Source: Sulfobacillus thermosulfidooxidans DSM 9293
Lineage (GTDB): Bacteria > Bacillota > Sulfobacillia > Sulfobacillales > Sulfobacillaceae
Length of the DNA: 64,000 nt
Direction: 5' to 3'
Assembly: GCF_900176145.1 (NCBI RefSeq)
Contig: NZ_FWWY01000001.1
Span: 1,907,819-1,971,818 of the forward strand
The notes beneath the pieces were generated by a model. That model was not told the origin of the DNA and made no database searches. It saw only the letters and a list, made by a program, of their open reading frames with translations. Positions 606-63,769 of this stretch are shown here, one piece after another. Both the position numbers and the translations under genes were made by a program. The first letter of the stretch is position 1, and the number at the start of each line of letters is the position of its first letter.

Positions 606-1255
606 TTAGTGCAACGCGGCATTCAAAATCCCTTTAAGGTACTCATTTTCGGGAACGGCTCCCAAAATTTCTACATGACCATTGAAAATGGATTTGGGCA
701 CACTGGAGACGTCGTGGCGGGCTGCAAGCTCGTTGAAGGTGCCGGAATCGATGAGATCATCGGTAATGTGAGGTTGAATGAGGGACATATCATGGGCCAG
801 TCGGACTGCCCTGGGACACCACCGGCACGTTGGTGTGGTAAAGACCTGAATATGGACAGGTTGACCGAGTTGTTTAAGCGTTTCTTGAGTTTTTTCGCTA
901 AGCGTTTCGTGATGGGTAGAAAGAGCCTTGATGTCTTCTAAAAACGTGCCAAATTCTAGGCCACTCGGAATCCCAACATAGCGAATACCCGTTTCTTGAT
1001 GCTGTTTATCCGCCAATATGCCAATGGGACCCGTGATACTCTGCCCTGTCTCATGTCCGGGTTCCAGTTCCGGAGCCTTATCCACTGTAGCCACGGAGAA
1101 AAGCGGGGTCAGTTGGGCGACTTCTTGCGAAATATCCCAAAACACCTGAAAATACTCGCTTTGGGGCCAGGATAAATGAGGAGTTGTACGGGGTCTTTAA
1201 GGTCTTGAAGAAATTGTGACACTTGTTGTTGAAGTTTTTCATCTAAATATGCCAT
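606..1255 (-). pseudogene. Protein disulfide oxidoreductase (glutaredoxin-like), one apparent frameshift
   Basis: The C-terminal reading frame carries a thioredoxin-fold domain with redox motif CRWC (TTPTCRWCPRA) and the cis-proline segment SSVPKS. The N-terminal part, MAYLDEKLQ..., starts at the ATG ending at 1255 in another frame. The frames join if one base is added at the AAA/TTT run at 1160-1162, which reads ...PGPK-SEYFQVFWDISQEV. The repaired product of about 216 residues has the length and two-domain layout of archaeal/bacterial PDO proteins. Its N-terminal domain lacks a CxxC, so only the C-terminal site would be active. The indel may be a real mutation or a homopolymer sequencing error. 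Thiol-disulfide exchange in the cytoplasm is the known family role. Confidence 0.7.
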
Positions 1256-1510
1256 ATTGGTCACCTGCGTAGAAGATTTCGGTAAAGCGCATGTTAACCC
1301 GATGCTGTTACCCTATCACGTGGGCTCAAAGAATCAATCCATCAATGGACCTAACCTGGCACATCCTCCATTGTTCATTGTTGGATTTCTGACAGTCAGA
1401 AAGGATGATTAAAGCTAGCGATGCTGTGGTCAACGGCCCCTTGAATAAAGTCGTAAAATAGGTCTATTGCAAAATGTACAATCTCAAATCCTTCTGCTAT
1501 ATAAAAAGAC

Positions 1511-1547
1511 AGACCGTTCCCAGTCGGTATCGATTGAGGAACGGTCT
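1511..1547 (-). terminator. Rho-independent terminator after pdxA2
   Basis: AGACCGTTCC (1511-1520) and GGAACGGTCT (1538-1547) form a perfect 10-bp stem. Read on the minus strand, the hairpin is followed by CTTTTTATATAG, a U-rich tail. It lies 22 bp after the pdxA2 stop codon and closes the minus-strand operon. The rest of the 1256-1568 gap holds no other feature that I can support. Confidence 0.8.
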
Positions 1548-1568
1548 CATAACGGCTATTTCAAATTA

Positions 1569-2585
1569 TTAATTGCGGGATTGCTTTAATAGGGTTAATT
1601 CTTTGGCGACCCGAAGCGCTTCTGATTGTCCATGAGCATCGGCAATGCCCTGTCCCGCAATGTCGAAGGCCGTACCGTGGTCAACTGACGTCCGTATCAC
1701 AGGCAAGCCTAATGTGACACTAACCGTGCCGTTGAAATCTAAGGTTTTGGTAGCAATATGGCCTTGGTCATGGTAAAGGGATAACACTCCGTGGTAACGA
1801 CCCATGCGGGCCTGATAGAAGACGGCATCGGCCGGAATGGGTCCTTCAACGCTAAGACCATCTTGTTGTGCTTTTTTAATGGCGGGGATTAAGATCTCTT
1901 GTTCTTCCGTTCCAATTAACCCGTTTTCTCCCGCGTGAGGATTTAACGCGGCGACGGCTAATACGGGTTGTTCAAATCCCAATTCCACCAGGTATTTGAT
2001 TCCTTGTTGAATACCGTCGTAGACCTGTTCAATGGTTAAAAGCCGTATCGCATCTTTAAGAGGATGATGCCGGGTTAAAAAGAACACGCGAAGATTACCC
2101 ACCACAAACATGGTCACCACATGGTGGGCAGAAAACAGTTCGGCCAGCATCTCCGTGTGCCCAGGATAGTGGTAGCCGGCTTTACGCACGGCCTCCTTGT
2201 TAATCGGCGCCGTATTGATCGCGTCGATCTCCCCGTGTAATGCTGATTGAATGGCGGCGGTAATGGCTTTAACCGCCATATCTCCGGCTTTGGGGTGAAC
2301 CTCTCCTAACTTAGGTGTTGACTCCACATTAGACGTTGGCACAATCTCTAAGGTCCCGTAATGGCCTTTGGCGGAAACAGCATCTTCGATGACGCGTAAT
2401 TGCAAGGGACTTTTTACCCGTGCTAAGGTTTCATTAAACACTAAGGGATCACCATAAATTATAGGAATCATCCCATCATAATGCGAATGATCGGTTAAGG
2501 CTTTAATAATAATTTCGGGCCCGATCCCTGCGGGATCGCCCATCGTGATGCCGACCCGTATGGGACGCATTGTCAACTGGTCCAT
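1569..2585 (-). CDS. pdxA2: PdxA2-type 4-phospho-threonate/erythronate dehydrogenase
   Basis: This 338-residue protein belongs to the PdxA family of NAD-dependent, metal-dependent 4-phosphohydroxyacid dehydrogenases. Visible landmarks are the N-terminal GDPAGIGPEI, and the three metal-binding histidines in YPGHTEML, LNPHAGENG and YHDQGH. The ATG ending at 2585 is preferred over the TTG six bases upstream because AGGAG lies eight bases before it. The start is two bases after the DUF1537 kinase stop, so the two are translated together. The neighbours (DUF1537 kinase, DeoR regulator, sugar-acid MFS) point to PdxA2, which oxidises and decarboxylates D-threonate- or D-erythronate-4-phosphate to dihydroxyacetone phosphate, rather than to vitamin B6 synthesis. 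The exact substrate is inferred from context. Confidence 0.88.
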   Translation of the reverse strand: MDQLTMRPIRVGITMGDPAGIGPEIIIKALTDHSHYDGMIPIIYGDPLVFNETLARVKSPLQLRVIEDAVSAKGHYGTLEIVPTSNVESTPKLGEVHPKAGDMAVKAITAAIQSALHGEIDAINTAPINKEAVRKAGYHYPGHTEMLAELFSAHHVVTMFVVGNLRVFFLTRHHPLKDAIRLLTIEQVYDGIQQGIKYLVELGFEQPVLAVAALNPHAGENGLIGTEEQEILIPAIKKAQQDGLSVEGPIPADAVFYQARMGRYHGVLSLYHDQGHIATKTLDFNGTVSVTLGLPVIRTSVDHGTAFDIAGQGIADAHGQSEALRVAKELTLLKQSRN

Positions 2586-60594: not shown

Positions 60595-61017
60595 CTATGG
60601 GTGTCTATGGGAATGTTCAGGATTTGGGTGGTGGGCCCAGGATTTTAGATGATTTTCGAGAAGGCTATTCATATCTTGTTGCCAGCTGTCCCATAAGGCG
60701 TTCAGTTTTTGCCTCAATAGAGTTTGCATGAGGTGGATATCGTCTTCACTGATGGCAGCTGGTGAAGGTGTGCCGAGTATTTGGCGGATGTGTTCAAACT
60801 GTTGATATTTTTGAAGCTGGTTGATGTGATCCGGTTCCAATTTTTCTAGCAGTTGAAGTCCGGCGGACAGGGCTAATGAAATAACGTGAGGCCACATGGA
60901 CGGGGGAAACCGACTGAGATATTCGGGGATGGTCGAATCAACAGGCAGCGAGTCGACGCTAAGGGTATGGTGGATCATATCAAGCCGGGTGATTTTAATC
61001 GGATTCTTGCTCTCCAT
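60595..61017 (-). CDS. Unknown helical protein, translated with HipA_2-like gene
   Basis: This 140-residue protein overlaps the 3' end of the HipA_2-like gene by 23 bases. It is mostly helical, with IPEYLSRFPPSMWPHVISLA near residue 30, QLQKYQQFEHIRQIL near 68, and a His-rich C-terminus (HHPNPEHSHRHP). I recognise no family. Overlap with the upstream gene suggests a partner protein in one complex. The His-rich tail echoes the His-rich small proteins further right. Confidence 0.6.
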   Translation of the reverse strand: MESKNPIKITRLDMIHHTLSVDSLPVDSTIPEYLSRFPPSMWPHVISLALSAGLQLLEKLEPDHINQLQKYQQFEHIRQILGTPSPAAISEDDIHLMQTLLRQKLNALWDSWQQDMNSLLENHLKSWAHHPNPEHSHRHP

Positions 61018-62071
61018 GGTCAGTGGATACCCCCTTGACGGGTGTGCTGGCGATGATTTCTTCGTCTGTGTCTTCGTGATTATAGGTATTCATATCACTA
61101 AGCGGCAAAGCCTTCTCGTTTTGCTGAGTCAGCGCATAAGATCCATCATTTTGACTGGGATTGATGTTTAAGTCTGAATCCGTGTCTTCTTGGGGTGGGT
61201 GACTATCAAAGTCATCTTGTGCTAAAAGTGAAGGGGATTCCAAAGGCGCGTCCTTAATGGGAACAACCTCTTTAAGACTTTTGTTGTGATTGTACAGCCA
61301 TTCTAAATGCTGGGCCACTTTTTCCAATTTCTTTTGCCGGTAAGTCAGAAACTCCACAATAGCTTCTTTGCGTTCAGCGGACAGACCCCACTGTTTAGGC
61401 ACGGTATTGACAATCTCCCTAAGATCCCATGACGTTAGAGATTGCATTTTGTTTAAAGCGGAATCAAATGTCAAGCGGCAGGGAATGTCCTCAGCAATGG
61501 CGGTTAGGGGAGAGGGTAAAGGAAATTGGCGGCGGTAGCGTCGCAAACTTTCAATTGACCATAATGGACCGCCAGGAAAGATGAAGCCATGGTCAATGAT
61601 GATGAATTGAGACGATGGGCCTTGAGGAATCCGTAAAATATGAGAAAATTTGACGTCGCGATTATAGAGCCACGATTCAAAGAGCGCGCATAACGGGAGT
61701 TGGGACCAATTTGATAAATCATCAATCCTATCGGTTCTTTTGAGAGAACGGGCTTCGGCAATATAGAGTGTGCCAAACTGTAAGCCTGGCTGCCAGCGAT
61801 ATTTGGTCAGATACGGCATTTCCCTCAATTGATCCCAGGATACATCGACTAAGACCACCTCAGGGACGGGAACACCAAGGGCATGGCCTAACAGGGTGCC
61901 AATCAAGTCGCTAGATAAGCTGCGTGTAGTTTGCGGGTTATGTTGGAATTTAACATGCACAATACGCCCATCTTCTAATCGCAATAATAAGGGTTTAGAG
62001 CCGCCAGCACCTTGGGGGCGAATAAATTCGGCGGCTTTGACAATTTCCAGTGGATAACGAGAATCGCTCAT
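60995..62071 (-). CDS. HipA_2-like protein (HipA-family kinase fold)
   Basis: The 358-residue protein starts at the ATG ending at 62071 (AAAGGGG upstream; the open frame extends to 62149). The core resembles the HipA_2 group: AAEFIRPQGAGGSKPLLLRL near residue 15 (20 residues), VKFQHNPQTTRSLSSDLIG near 45, LGVPVPEVVLVDV near 70, LFESWLYNRDVKF near 140 (matching the DxWxxNxDR catalytic loop with WLYNRDVK) and IIIDHGFIF near 168. The last 90 residues are polar and disordered. HipA_2 proteins are probable kinases of unknown target, often found beside short genes; no toxin-antitoxin partner (HipB) is nearby. Confidence 0.72.
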   Translation of the reverse strand: MSDSRYPLEIVKAAEFIRPQGAGGSKPLLLRLEDGRIVHVKFQHNPQTTRSLSSDLIGTLLGHALGVPVPEVVLVDVSWDQLREMPYLTKYRWQPGLQFGTLYIAEARSLKRTDRIDDLSNWSQLPLCALFESWLYNRDVKFSHILRIPQGPSSQFIIIDHGFIFPGGPLWSIESLRRYRRQFPLPSPLTAIAEDIPCRLTFDSALNKMQSLTSWDLREIVNTVPKQWGLSAERKEAIVEFLTYRQKKLEKVAQHLEWLYNHNKSLKEVVPIKDAPLESPSLLAQDDFDSHPPQEDTDSDLNINPSQNDGSYALTQQNEKALPLSDMNTYNHEDTDEEIIASTPVKGVSTDHGEQESD

Positions 62072-62150
62072 GACAATACCCCTTTGGCTCAGAGTCATAT
62101 AAAGGCATGGGCTAACATAATCAAGGAAGTATGAAAGGACTGATGGCATA

Positions 62151-62627
62151 ATGGATAAAGGTCGTGAGGAATCGGTAAAAGGTTCCGGGGCTCATAGTGC
62201 TGATCATGCCCAAATGGAAAAACGCAGCCCCTTACAAGCCCGGTGGACGTCGTCATTGGACATGGGTCAGGTTGACAAACATAGTGAGCGGCCGGTGGAT
62301 GCCAATGACCTTACCGCCTCAACCTCCGCCAGCAAGGACACAGCCTCGGTGAACCCGCCGCCAGCTAGTCATTCCGCGGACAGAAGTGCCAAGACGCCAG
62401 ATCCGGACAAAAATACGCCTTTGCACCCGTCTCAGTTAATTCATCAGTTACGAGACGTGGCGGCCTCATTGGTACAGCTGGCTCAAAGCTTAGAACAGTT
62501 AGAAAATGTTTTGCACGCTCATTCTGATCCTTTACCACCTAAAGAGCCTTCAGCCTCCAATTTGTCGCAGCTTGTGAAAGATCGCCCTGATTTACAAGCT
62601 CTTCTGCGCCAATACCTATTTAAGTGA
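62151..62627 (+). CDS. Unknown, largely disordered protein
   Basis: The 158-residue protein is divergent from the HipA_2-like gene. Residues 1-95 are polar and rich in Ser, Asp, Pro and Lys and appear disordered. Residues 98-120 form an amphipathic helix (LIHQLRDVAASLVQLAQSLE) and the last 22 residues (LSQLVKDRPDLQALLRQYLF) another. No ribosome binding site is strong (the ATG follows GGCATA), so expression is uncertain, but coding character is good through the frame. No family recognised; spore-coat-like by context only. Confidence 0.55.
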   Translation: MDKGREESVKGSGAHSADHAQMEKRSPLQARWTSSLDMGQVDKHSERPVDANDLTASTSASKDTASVNPPPASHSADRSAKTPDPDKNTPLHPSQLIHQLRDVAASLVQLAQSLEQLENVLHAHSDPLPPKEPSASNLSQLVKDRPDLQALLRQYLFK

Positions 62628-62718: not shown

Positions 62719-63120
62719 TTACGATTGCGAAGAGAAACGTCCAATCAAGGGTAGGATGCGATCGAAGAAGGGCAGACGGTCAATGCCCACCAGGTTGGAA
62801 ATCGGTATGATCACTTGATCGCGGAATCCAAGACTTACACTGCCCGCAATCACGTCGCGCATGACAATAAAGTCACTTGCTACCTGGTATAGATTGCCTA
62901 CCAAAGTCGAAGCATTATCGACGGCTGAAGAAAGACTCACGCGAACATAGTCCCCGACCAGCGAGGATAAGTAGGCGTCAAAACTCGACGGAATGCTAGA
63001 TTCTTCCGATTCACTCGATCCAAAGGAATTTTGTTCGCCCAACAAAAATAACAAAGGCAATAAATCACGCCGTTGACCTAATAGTAAAAGCGGCAATAAC
63101 TCTTCCCAGGATGTATTCAC
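62719..63120 (-). CDS. DUF2642/YuzF-like small protein with Leu-rich start
   Basis: The 133-residue protein starts with AGGAGGA before the ATG ending at 63120. Residues 1-30 are Leu-rich (LLPLLLLGQRRDLLPLLFLL). Residues 50-115 look like the small beta-barrel DUF2642 domain (YLSSLVGDYVRVSL, TLVGNLYQVASDFIVMRDV, VIIPISNLVGI), found in spore-associated small proteins of Bacillota. The arrangement near short Leu-rich paralogs suggests a spore-surface or coat cluster. The domain match is by eye, so it needs a profile search. Confidence 0.6.
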   Translation of the reverse strand: MNTSWEELLPLLLLGQRRDLLPLLFLLGEQNSFGSSESEESSIPSSFDAYLSSLVGDYVRVSLSSAVDNASTLVGNLYQVASDFIVMRDVIAGSVSLGFRDQVIIPISNLVGIDRLPFFDRILPLIGRFSSQS

Positions 63121-63183: not shown

Positions 63184-63234
63184 TCCGGACCTCAGGACCC
63201 TAGGACTTTACCGGGTACTGTCCTAAGGTCCGGA
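63184..63234 (-). terminator. Large hairpin between the small protein genes
   Basis: TCCGGACCTCAGGAC (63184-63198) and GTCCTAAGGTCCGGA (63220-63234) pair over 15 bp with one mismatch, with a 21-base loop. It lies 43 bp after the stop of the 44-residue gene. There is no U-tract, so processing or mRNA stabilisation is as likely as termination. Confidence 0.55.
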
Positions 63235-63276: not shown

Positions 63277-63411
63277 TTAATAGGAGCAAGAACGCGAACT
63301 GCGGCTGCGAGGAAATTCTCCGACCAATAAGAGTAATAAGACTAAGTCAATCGGGAAATGACGGCGATGATGGTGATGATGATGCGATGAACAACTTTGA
63401 GATGGATTCAT
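63277..63411 (-). CDS. 44-residue His/Arg-rich then Leu-rich small protein
   Basis: An ATG ending at 63411 follows AAGGAGGCGCC and opens a frame of 44 codons with stop TAA at 63277. The product has MNPSQSCSSHHHHHHRRHFP, a hydrophobic core IDLVLLLLLVGE, and a basic, Ser/Arg-rich tail. It matches the next gene in the core HFPI-x-L and Leu-rich run. Too short for most gene callers, but it has a strong ribosome binding site, a paralog next door and a long hydrophobic stretch. Possible roles: coat, membrane-lytic or spore-associated peptide. Function unknown. Confidence 0.6.
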   Translation of the reverse strand: MNPSQSCSSHHHHHHRRHFPIDLVLLLLLVGEFPRSRSSRSCSY

Positions 63412-63438
63412 GATTGGCGCCTCCTTATGGTATGCCAG

Positions 63439-63564
63439 CTAAACCGTCATACGTGAGCGAGAATACGTGTATGACGAATGACGATGTTCTTCCAATAACA
63501 CCAGCAATAAAAGCAAGCCGATCGGAAAATGCCGGCGACGCCTACAGTGATGCGTGTGGCTCAC
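63439..63564 (-). CDS. 41-residue Arg-rich then Leu-rich small protein, paralog of its neighbour
   Basis: A GTG ending at 63564, about eleven bases after AGGAGG, opens 41 codons to the TAG at 63439. The product has HTHHCRRRRHFPI, then GLLLLLVLLEEHRHSSY, matching the downstream 44-residue protein at RRxHFPI and the Leu run. The two genes lie 27 bp apart on one strand with separate strong binding sites. A conserved motif in two adjacent short frames argues for real coding rather than chance. Confidence 0.6.
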   Translation of the reverse strand: MSHTHHCRRRRHFPIGLLLLLVLLEEHRHSSYTYSRSRMTV

Positions 63565-63769
63565 CTATGCTACACCTCCTGTCGTAGATCGACTTCACAG
63601 GCATCCTATTCAACAATTTCCTTATGTGACACAAAGTGGAAAAGATTTATGGAATGGCTTTTTGGTGCGATCATCTTCATTGAGACCCTATTGACGAATT
63701 GTCTATTGAAACCCGCATGGGAGGCATGATAATGTAGCAAAAACTCAAAAATCTGAAAGGAGGCCGCCC

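What the first reader, a model, noticed from the sequence alone, without database searches (positions are those of the whole stretch)
63277..63564. Pair of uncalled micro-proteins with a shared HFPI-Leu core
Two adjacent frames of 44 and 41 codons, each with a strong ribosome binding site, encode His/Arg-rich starts, the motif HFPI-x-L and a Leu-rich run. The similarity between them supports coding. Six consecutive His in one and a basic cluster in the other are unusual. A neighbouring protein also has Leu-rich blocks split by QRRD. This may be a small-protein system, perhaps on the spore surface.
Basis: seen in the sequence. Interest (0 to 1): 0.62.

Follow-up and report, generated by a model that had tools for sequence, protein, structure and literature searches.

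The report
Tandem microprotein genes beside Sm-fold gene
Two tiny neighbouring genes in an acid-loving, spore-forming bacterium are real, conserved and under selection, and sit in a fixed gene neighbourhood with an Sm-fold protein and a kinase-like protein; what they do, possibly in the spore coat, is not shown.

Summary
Homologues lie directly upstream of the same 133-aa neighbour in 10 Sulfobacillaceae genomes, each with start, RBS, P-[IL]-x-L-type core, Leu run and Arg/Ser/His tail. Codon changes show purifying selection: the 44-aa protein is identical in the closest species despite 4 synonymous changes; other pairs have dN well below dS. The two are probably ancient tandem duplicates. A conserved promoter-like element precedes the pair and stays in place where the upstream copy has decayed; a stem-loop follows it in seven genomes. 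The neighbour with 'Leu blocks split by QRRD' is a bacterial Sm/LSm-fold protein with a Leu-rich helical N-terminus, followed in 17 of 17 genomes by a HipA-like kinase. No part of the microproteins matches a named family. The Leu run is about 10 residues, too short to span a membrane. The best functional reading, inferred only, is a surface-assembly module that works like Bacillus CotB/CotG/CotH: basic Ser/His-rich small proteins, a partner with Leu blocks, and a kinase. Nothing here ties it to the spore: the promoter element is not assignable and the scanned neighbourhood holds no spore genes. A solid new lineage-specific small-protein family of moderate interest.

The parts
63439..63564 (-). 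Microprotein A, 41 aa, GTG start
   Evidence: Homologous frames in G003, G022, G024, G026 and a diverged one in G005; syn 7 / nonsyn 7 against G003, fewer nonsynonymous than random (p 0.001)
63277..63411 (-). Microprotein B, 44 aa, ATG start, (His)6
   Evidence: Homologues in 9 other Sulfobacillaceae genomes; syn 4 / nonsyn 0 against G003; dN below dS in all pairs with a computable dS
63575..63580 (-). Ribosome binding site AGGAGG of A, 10 nt from GTG
   Evidence: sequence; conserved in G003 and in G024/G026
63420..63425 (-). Ribosome binding site AGGAGG of B, 8 nt from ATG
   Evidence: sequence; an RBS of 5 or 6 matching bases before B in all 10 genomes
63602..63631 (-). Promoter-like element TGTCACA-N12-TGAATAGGATG, 37 nt before the start of A
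   Evidence: Found by regular expression in 8 loci and in variant form in G003 and G025; the pattern occurs once in this genome
63184..63234 (-). Stem-loop between B and the 133-aa gene (possible terminator or mRNA 3' end; no T run)
   Evidence: -33.6 kcal/mol in a 76-nt fold, z -3.55; same stem in G002, G003, G005, G006, different hairpin in G024/G026; single copy in genome
62719..63120 (-). 133-aa protein: two Leu-rich helices (LLPLLLLGQRRDLLPLLFLL) then an Sm/LSm-fold domain (about residues 45-117)
   Evidence: Conserved in 17 of 61 genomes; AlphaFold model matches Sm proteins, VIA Z 10-11 over 61-71 residues
60995..62149 (-). HipA-like kinase (Pfam HipA_2), downstream on the same strand; true start probably ATG 62071
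   Evidence: PF20613 E 8.5e-12; adjacent in 17 of 17 genomes with the Sm-fold gene; Lys, NxDxK and DHG residues kept
60595..61017 (-). 140-aa protein of no known family, overlapping the 3' end of the kinase gene
62151..62627 (+). 158-aa Ser/Ala-rich protein, convergent with the 133-aa gene
   Evidence: found beside the cluster in 12 of 17 loci; no confident family

Best explanation
Shown by comparison: A and B are protein-coding genes under purifying selection, always just upstream of the Sm-fold gene. Probable: they arose by tandem duplication, and one promoter element upstream of A drives a short A-B message that ends at, or is protected by, the stem-loop; some species have lost A. Inferred: the proteins are structural. 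The 10-residue Leu helix packs against the paired Leu helices of the Sm-fold protein, while the His/Arg head and the Arg/Ser/His tail stay exposed, charged and possibly metal-binding. The linked HipA-like kinase phosphorylates Ser in those tails (or in the SESEESS linker of the Sm-fold protein) to set assembly. In outline this works like the Bacillus CotB/CotG/CotH coat module, made of different protein families. A spore surface is the likeliest site, but this last step is the weakest.
For: Frame, start, RBS and order conserved in 10 genomes; fewer nonsynonymous changes than random in all pairs listed. All 10 genomes with strong hits have the Sm-fold gene within about 800 nt downstream, and among the 61 genomes searched for both, none without it has an adjacent pair. 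Promoter-like element in the same place in all 10. Sm fold and N-terminal helices. Kinase linkage 17/17 with Lys, NxDxK and DHG kept. B modelled as one helix, residues 21-30. The CotB/CotG/CotH parallel of a kinase with clustered Ser/Lys/Arg-rich substrates is from PMC7821199.
Against: No expression, interaction or phosphorylation data. Seven genomes keep the Sm-fold gene and the kinase without a detectable adjacent microprotein, so the microproteins are not essential to the module. The promoter-like element can be read as sigma-A or as mother-cell sigma and does not match the spoIVA upstream region closely. No spore genes among the window proteins scanned. CotH itself is absent from this genome. 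The kinase has His where many HipA-type kinases have the metal-binding Asn (comparison from memory). The helix models have modest confidence (block pLDDT 56-58 for the Sm protein N-terminus, mean 67.9 for B).
Confidence: 0.3

Rival explanations
1. Metal-binding small proteins: the His runs (4 to 9 His) bind Cu, Zn or Ni in an acidophile living at high metal load, and the Leu helix anchors them to a partner or membrane face.
For: His-rich heads are kept while the exact His number varies; named members come from records such as the MAG Sulfobacillus benefaciens AMDSBA4.
Against: A has more Arg than His in this species; no metal-resistance genes seen adjacent; does not explain the fixed link to the Sm-fold protein and the kinase.
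Confidence: 0.2
2. Vegetative regulatory peptides: small basic proteins that bind RNA or the Sm-like ring, acting as cofactors of a bacterial Sm-type RNA-binding protein.
For: The neighbour has a predicted Sm-type fold, closest to archaeal and eukaryotic Sm ring proteins; A and B are strongly basic (pI 11.3 and 9.7) and end in RS-rich tails; the promoter-like element could be a sigma-A promoter.
Against: The fold match shows no function; RNA-binding residues were not tested; Leu blocks look like assembly elements and not RNA-binding ones.
Confidence: 0.2
3. Type I toxin-like or signal-peptide-like peptides (membrane-active toxin, or secreted pheromone precursor) beside a HipA-type kinase.
For: Small, basic, one hydrophobic block, tandem copies, and a HipA-like kinase nearby.
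Against: Hydrophobic run is about 10 residues; the best 19-residue Kyte-Doolittle mean is 0.87 (A) and 1.17 (B), below the usual 1.6 for a membrane span. No Ala-x-Ala site after the run. Conserved at one fixed place and not mobile. Kinase also present where microproteins are absent.
Confidence: 0.08
4. Not genes: low-complexity open frames that look alike by chance or by repeat slippage.
For: His and Leu runs are low in complexity and the A-B BLASTP match alone is insignificant.
Against: Conserved frames, RBS and placement in 10 genomes; synonymous excess.
Confidence: 0.02

Closest known systems
CotB / CotG / CotH spore-coat phosphorylation cluster of Bacillus subtilis (PMC7821199)
   Same: A kinase encoded in a cluster with basic Ser-rich low-complexity proteins and a partner protein with a globular part; the microprotein tails are Ser/Arg-rich like the SKR regions.
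   Different: Kinase here is HipA_2 and not CotH; the Ser-rich proteins are only 38-53 aa and have a His head and a Leu helix in place of long repeats; spore location not shown; relation of the Sm-fold protein to the CotB N-terminal domain not tested.
Sm/LSm superfamily (SmAP, Hfq-like)
   Same: The 133-aa neighbour is predicted to have the Sm fold, residues about 45-117.
   Different: It carries a Leu-rich helical N-terminus and an acidic Ser-rich linker; ring formation and RNA binding unknown. This concerns the neighbour, not A and B.
Very small sporulation proteins such as SpoVM and the YjcZ-type proteins (from memory)
   Same: Under 60 aa, one hydrophobic or amphipathic helix.
   Different: No sequence match in Pfam or NCBIfam; His/Arg/Ser-rich and not Gly-rich or amphipathic.

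Membership tests
CotB/CotG/CotH coat module | CotH-family kinase (PF08757) in the genome | tested here: not met
   No match in own genome; control rings in B. subtilis
CotB/CotG/CotH coat module | A kinase gene clustered with basic Ser-rich proteins | tested here: met
   HipA_2 kinase in the same cluster in all 10 genomes that have the microproteins; RS-rich tails
CotB/CotG/CotH coat module | Mother-cell expression and presence in the spore coat | tested here: inconclusive
   Conserved element upstream fits several sigma factors; spoIVA comparison did not decide; protein location not testable here
CotB/CotG/CotH coat module | Phosphorylation of the Ser-rich regions by the kinase | not testable with these tools
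   needs biochemistry
Sm/LSm superfamily (133-aa neighbour) | Helix followed by five strongly bent strands | tested here: met
   AlphaFold model, block pLDDT up to 90 in the domain; VIA Z 10-11, rmsd 1.4-3.5
Sm/LSm superfamily (133-aa neighbour) | Significant sequence-profile match | tested here: inconclusive
   Only weak hits: RimP SH3 best E 0.03 in 5 members, an Sm-domain chain at E 0.64
DUF2642 (PF10842) | Match to the Pfam model | tested here: not met
   No match in own genome at E 0.1
HipA-like kinases (PF20613; downstream neighbour) | Profile match over cut-off and catalytic residues | tested here: met
   45.3 bits against cut-off 27; Lys, NxDxK and DHG kept in 17 sequences; activity unknown
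Type I toxins / single-span membrane peptides | Hydrophobic stretch long enough to span a membrane | tested here: not met
   19-residue hydropathy maximum 0.87 and 1.17; helix of 10 residues
Any named small-protein family in Pfam or NCBIfam | Profile match of A or B | tested here: not met
   No family at E 1

The most novel reading that the evidence does not exclude
A spore- or cell-surface assembly system in an acidophilic Bacillota lineage in which a HipA-type kinase, instead of CotH, phosphorylates 40-residue His/Arg/Ser proteins that dock by short Leu helices onto a bacterial Sm-fold ring protein.
Probability: 0.15. Interest if true: 0.75.

Novelty: new variant of a known kind. Interest (0 to 1): 0.45.

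Why it matters
Proteins of about 40 residues are easily missed by annotation, and this pair shows the comparative signature of real genes within one bacterial family. The fixed linkage of a microprotein pair, an Sm-fold protein and a HipA-like kinase gives a concrete, testable module. If it acts at the spore surface it would suggest that coat phosphorylation was invented a second time with a different kinase; if it acts with RNA it would add small cofactors to a bacterial Sm-type protein.

Tried and rejected
Chance or low-complexity artefact: rejected by codon pattern and placement. Membrane-span or type I toxin reading: hydrophobic run too short. Mobile or phage origin: no near-identity match to phage records and no plasmid match of the Sm-fold protein. 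DUF2642 and CotH in the genome: not found. YabG as a sigma-K marker: absent from the five genomes searched. The spoIVA upstream region was aligned to get a local sigma-E promoter; it did not settle the nature of the element upstream of A. Rfam gave nothing in the last 4 kb. Weak microprotein hits elsewhere (G000:C2, G015:C34, G077) are not beside the Sm-fold gene and were taken as chance. A scan of viral contigs with the microprotein alignment could not be run. Literature searches found no paper that describes these genes, or an LSm-domain spore-coat protein. The CotB N-terminal domain could not be fetched for comparison; a search of plasmids with a distant Sm-fold relative found nothing.

Full report
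1. The observation. Both frames exist exactly as described on the minus strand. B (63411..63277) has ATG, 44 aa, six consecutive His, RRHFPIDL and a Leu/Val run, and an RSRSSRS tail. A (63564..63439) has GTG, 41 aa, RRRRHFPIGL, a Leu run and a mixed His/Ser/Arg tail. AGGAGG lies 8 nt and 10 nt before the starts. The neighbour at 63120..62719 does carry LLPLLLLGQRRDLLPLLFLL. Neither microprotein nor the neighbour matches a named family in Pfam or NCBIfam.

2. Conservation. The window lies in a 3.86 Mb genome. Related loci in the named collection are Sulfobacillus and unnamed Bacillota MAGs. Searched in 61 relatives and in 154 genomes of the class with a profile, clear homologues appear in 10 genomes of the same family. 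Every one of the 10 has its copy directly upstream of the homologue of the 133-aa gene. That gene is found in 17 of 61 relatives, and 10 of those 17 have the microproteins against none of the other 44; the crude probability of such overlap is about 2e-7, without correction for relatedness. Two copies (A and B) are present in G000, G003, G022, G024 and G026. G005 has a diverged A, while G002, G006, G014 and G025 show B only by the criteria.

3. Coding. Against G003, B has 4 synonymous and no nonsynonymous differences, A 7 and 7, and the 133-aa gene 34 and 5. Over all pairs listed, the number of nonsynonymous codons is below the random expectation with p <= 0.005, and NG86 dN is below dS in every pair where dS could be computed. 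For many distant pairs dS is saturated and not usable. Conserved across species: a His-rich head, Arg, Pro, a Leu-rich run of about 8 to 9 and a Ser/Arg/His tail. A and B of the same genome align beyond shuffles that keep the Leu run fixed in G000 and G003 (0 of 2000) and G026 (p 0.014), but not clearly in G024 (0.055) or G022 (0.12), so tandem duplication is probable and not proven.

4. Regulation. The sequence TGTCA[CT]-N11..16-TGAATA-N-GATG occurs in 8 of the loci by regular expression and in variant form in G003 and G025. It ends 32 to 45 nt before A where A is intact (37 nt in this genome). In G005, G006, G002 and G014 it ends 180 to 189 nt before B, where A, its remnant or its former place lies. 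The pattern is found once in this genome. Its place fits a promoter of an A-B message. Its type is undecided: GTCACA...TAnGAT can be read as sigma-A, and TCAC...GAATAnGAT as a mother-cell sigma factor; the spoIVA region of the genus did not decide it. A strong stem-loop follows B (-33.6 kcal/mol, z -3.55) and is single copy. The same stem with changed loops is seen in G002, G003, G005 and G006, and another hairpin in G024 and G026. It has no T run in this genome, so it may be a non-canonical terminator or a 3' end protector.

5. The neighbours. An AlphaFold model of the 133-aa protein has two N-terminal Leu-rich helices (low confidence, pLDDT 56-58), a disordered acidic Ser-rich linker and a confident helix-plus-five-strand domain. 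That domain matches Sm and Sm-like proteins, with VIA Z 10-11 over 61 to 71 residues. Sequence methods only hint at this. More distant Sm-fold relatives exist in two other Bacillota genomes among 398 searched. A HipA_2 kinase follows on the same strand in 17 of 17 genomes with the Sm-fold gene, and a convergent 158-aa protein in 12 of 17. The kinase sequences keep the VK[FL]Q lysine, NxDxK and DHG, so activity is plausible.

6. Mechanism. Shown by comparison: two conserved small genes in a fixed neighbourhood. Inferred: B is mostly disordered with one helix of ten residues (modest confidence), its 19-residue hydropathy is below a membrane span, and the partner has Leu helices of similar kind; so the natural reading is docking through Leu helices with exposed charged ends. 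The kinase and Ser-rich tails suggest phosphorylation. This resembles the B. subtilis CotB/CotG/CotH cluster, where CotH phosphorylates Ser/Lys/Arg-rich regions of CotB and CotG (PMC7821199). CotH is missing here, so it is not that system; at most it works like it. Spore location is a guess: the genus has spoIVA, but no spore gene was seen among the 27 window proteins scanned.

7. Verdict. The gene claim is close to certain (about 0.97). The module claim, that microproteins, Sm-fold protein and kinase act together, is likely (about 0.6) on linkage alone, with the reservation that seven genomes do without detectable microproteins. The CotB/G/H-like surface-assembly reading is about 0.3, and the spore-specific form with HipA phosphorylation about 0.15.

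Noticed in passing
window 60995-62149 (-): HipA-like kinase linked to the Sm-fold gene in 17 of 17 genomes, including seven without microproteins: a conserved kinase / Sm-fold pair in its own right. The listed start is probably too early: conservation begins near ATG 62071.
   Followed up: partly
window 63184-63234 (-): Long near-perfect stem-loop between microprotein B and the Sm-fold gene, kept with sequence changes in four congeners and replaced by another hairpin in G024/G026.
   Followed up: partly
window 62151-62627 (+) and 60595-61017 (-): Two proteins of unknown function (158 and 140 aa) that travel with the cluster in most relatives.
   Followed up: no
L094 about 1137-1750 (+): In a distant Bacillota genome (G521) the Sm-fold relative has a long Asn-rich N-terminus with a basic start, and a second, small Sm-fold frame lies on the opposite strand of the same locus.
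   Followed up: no
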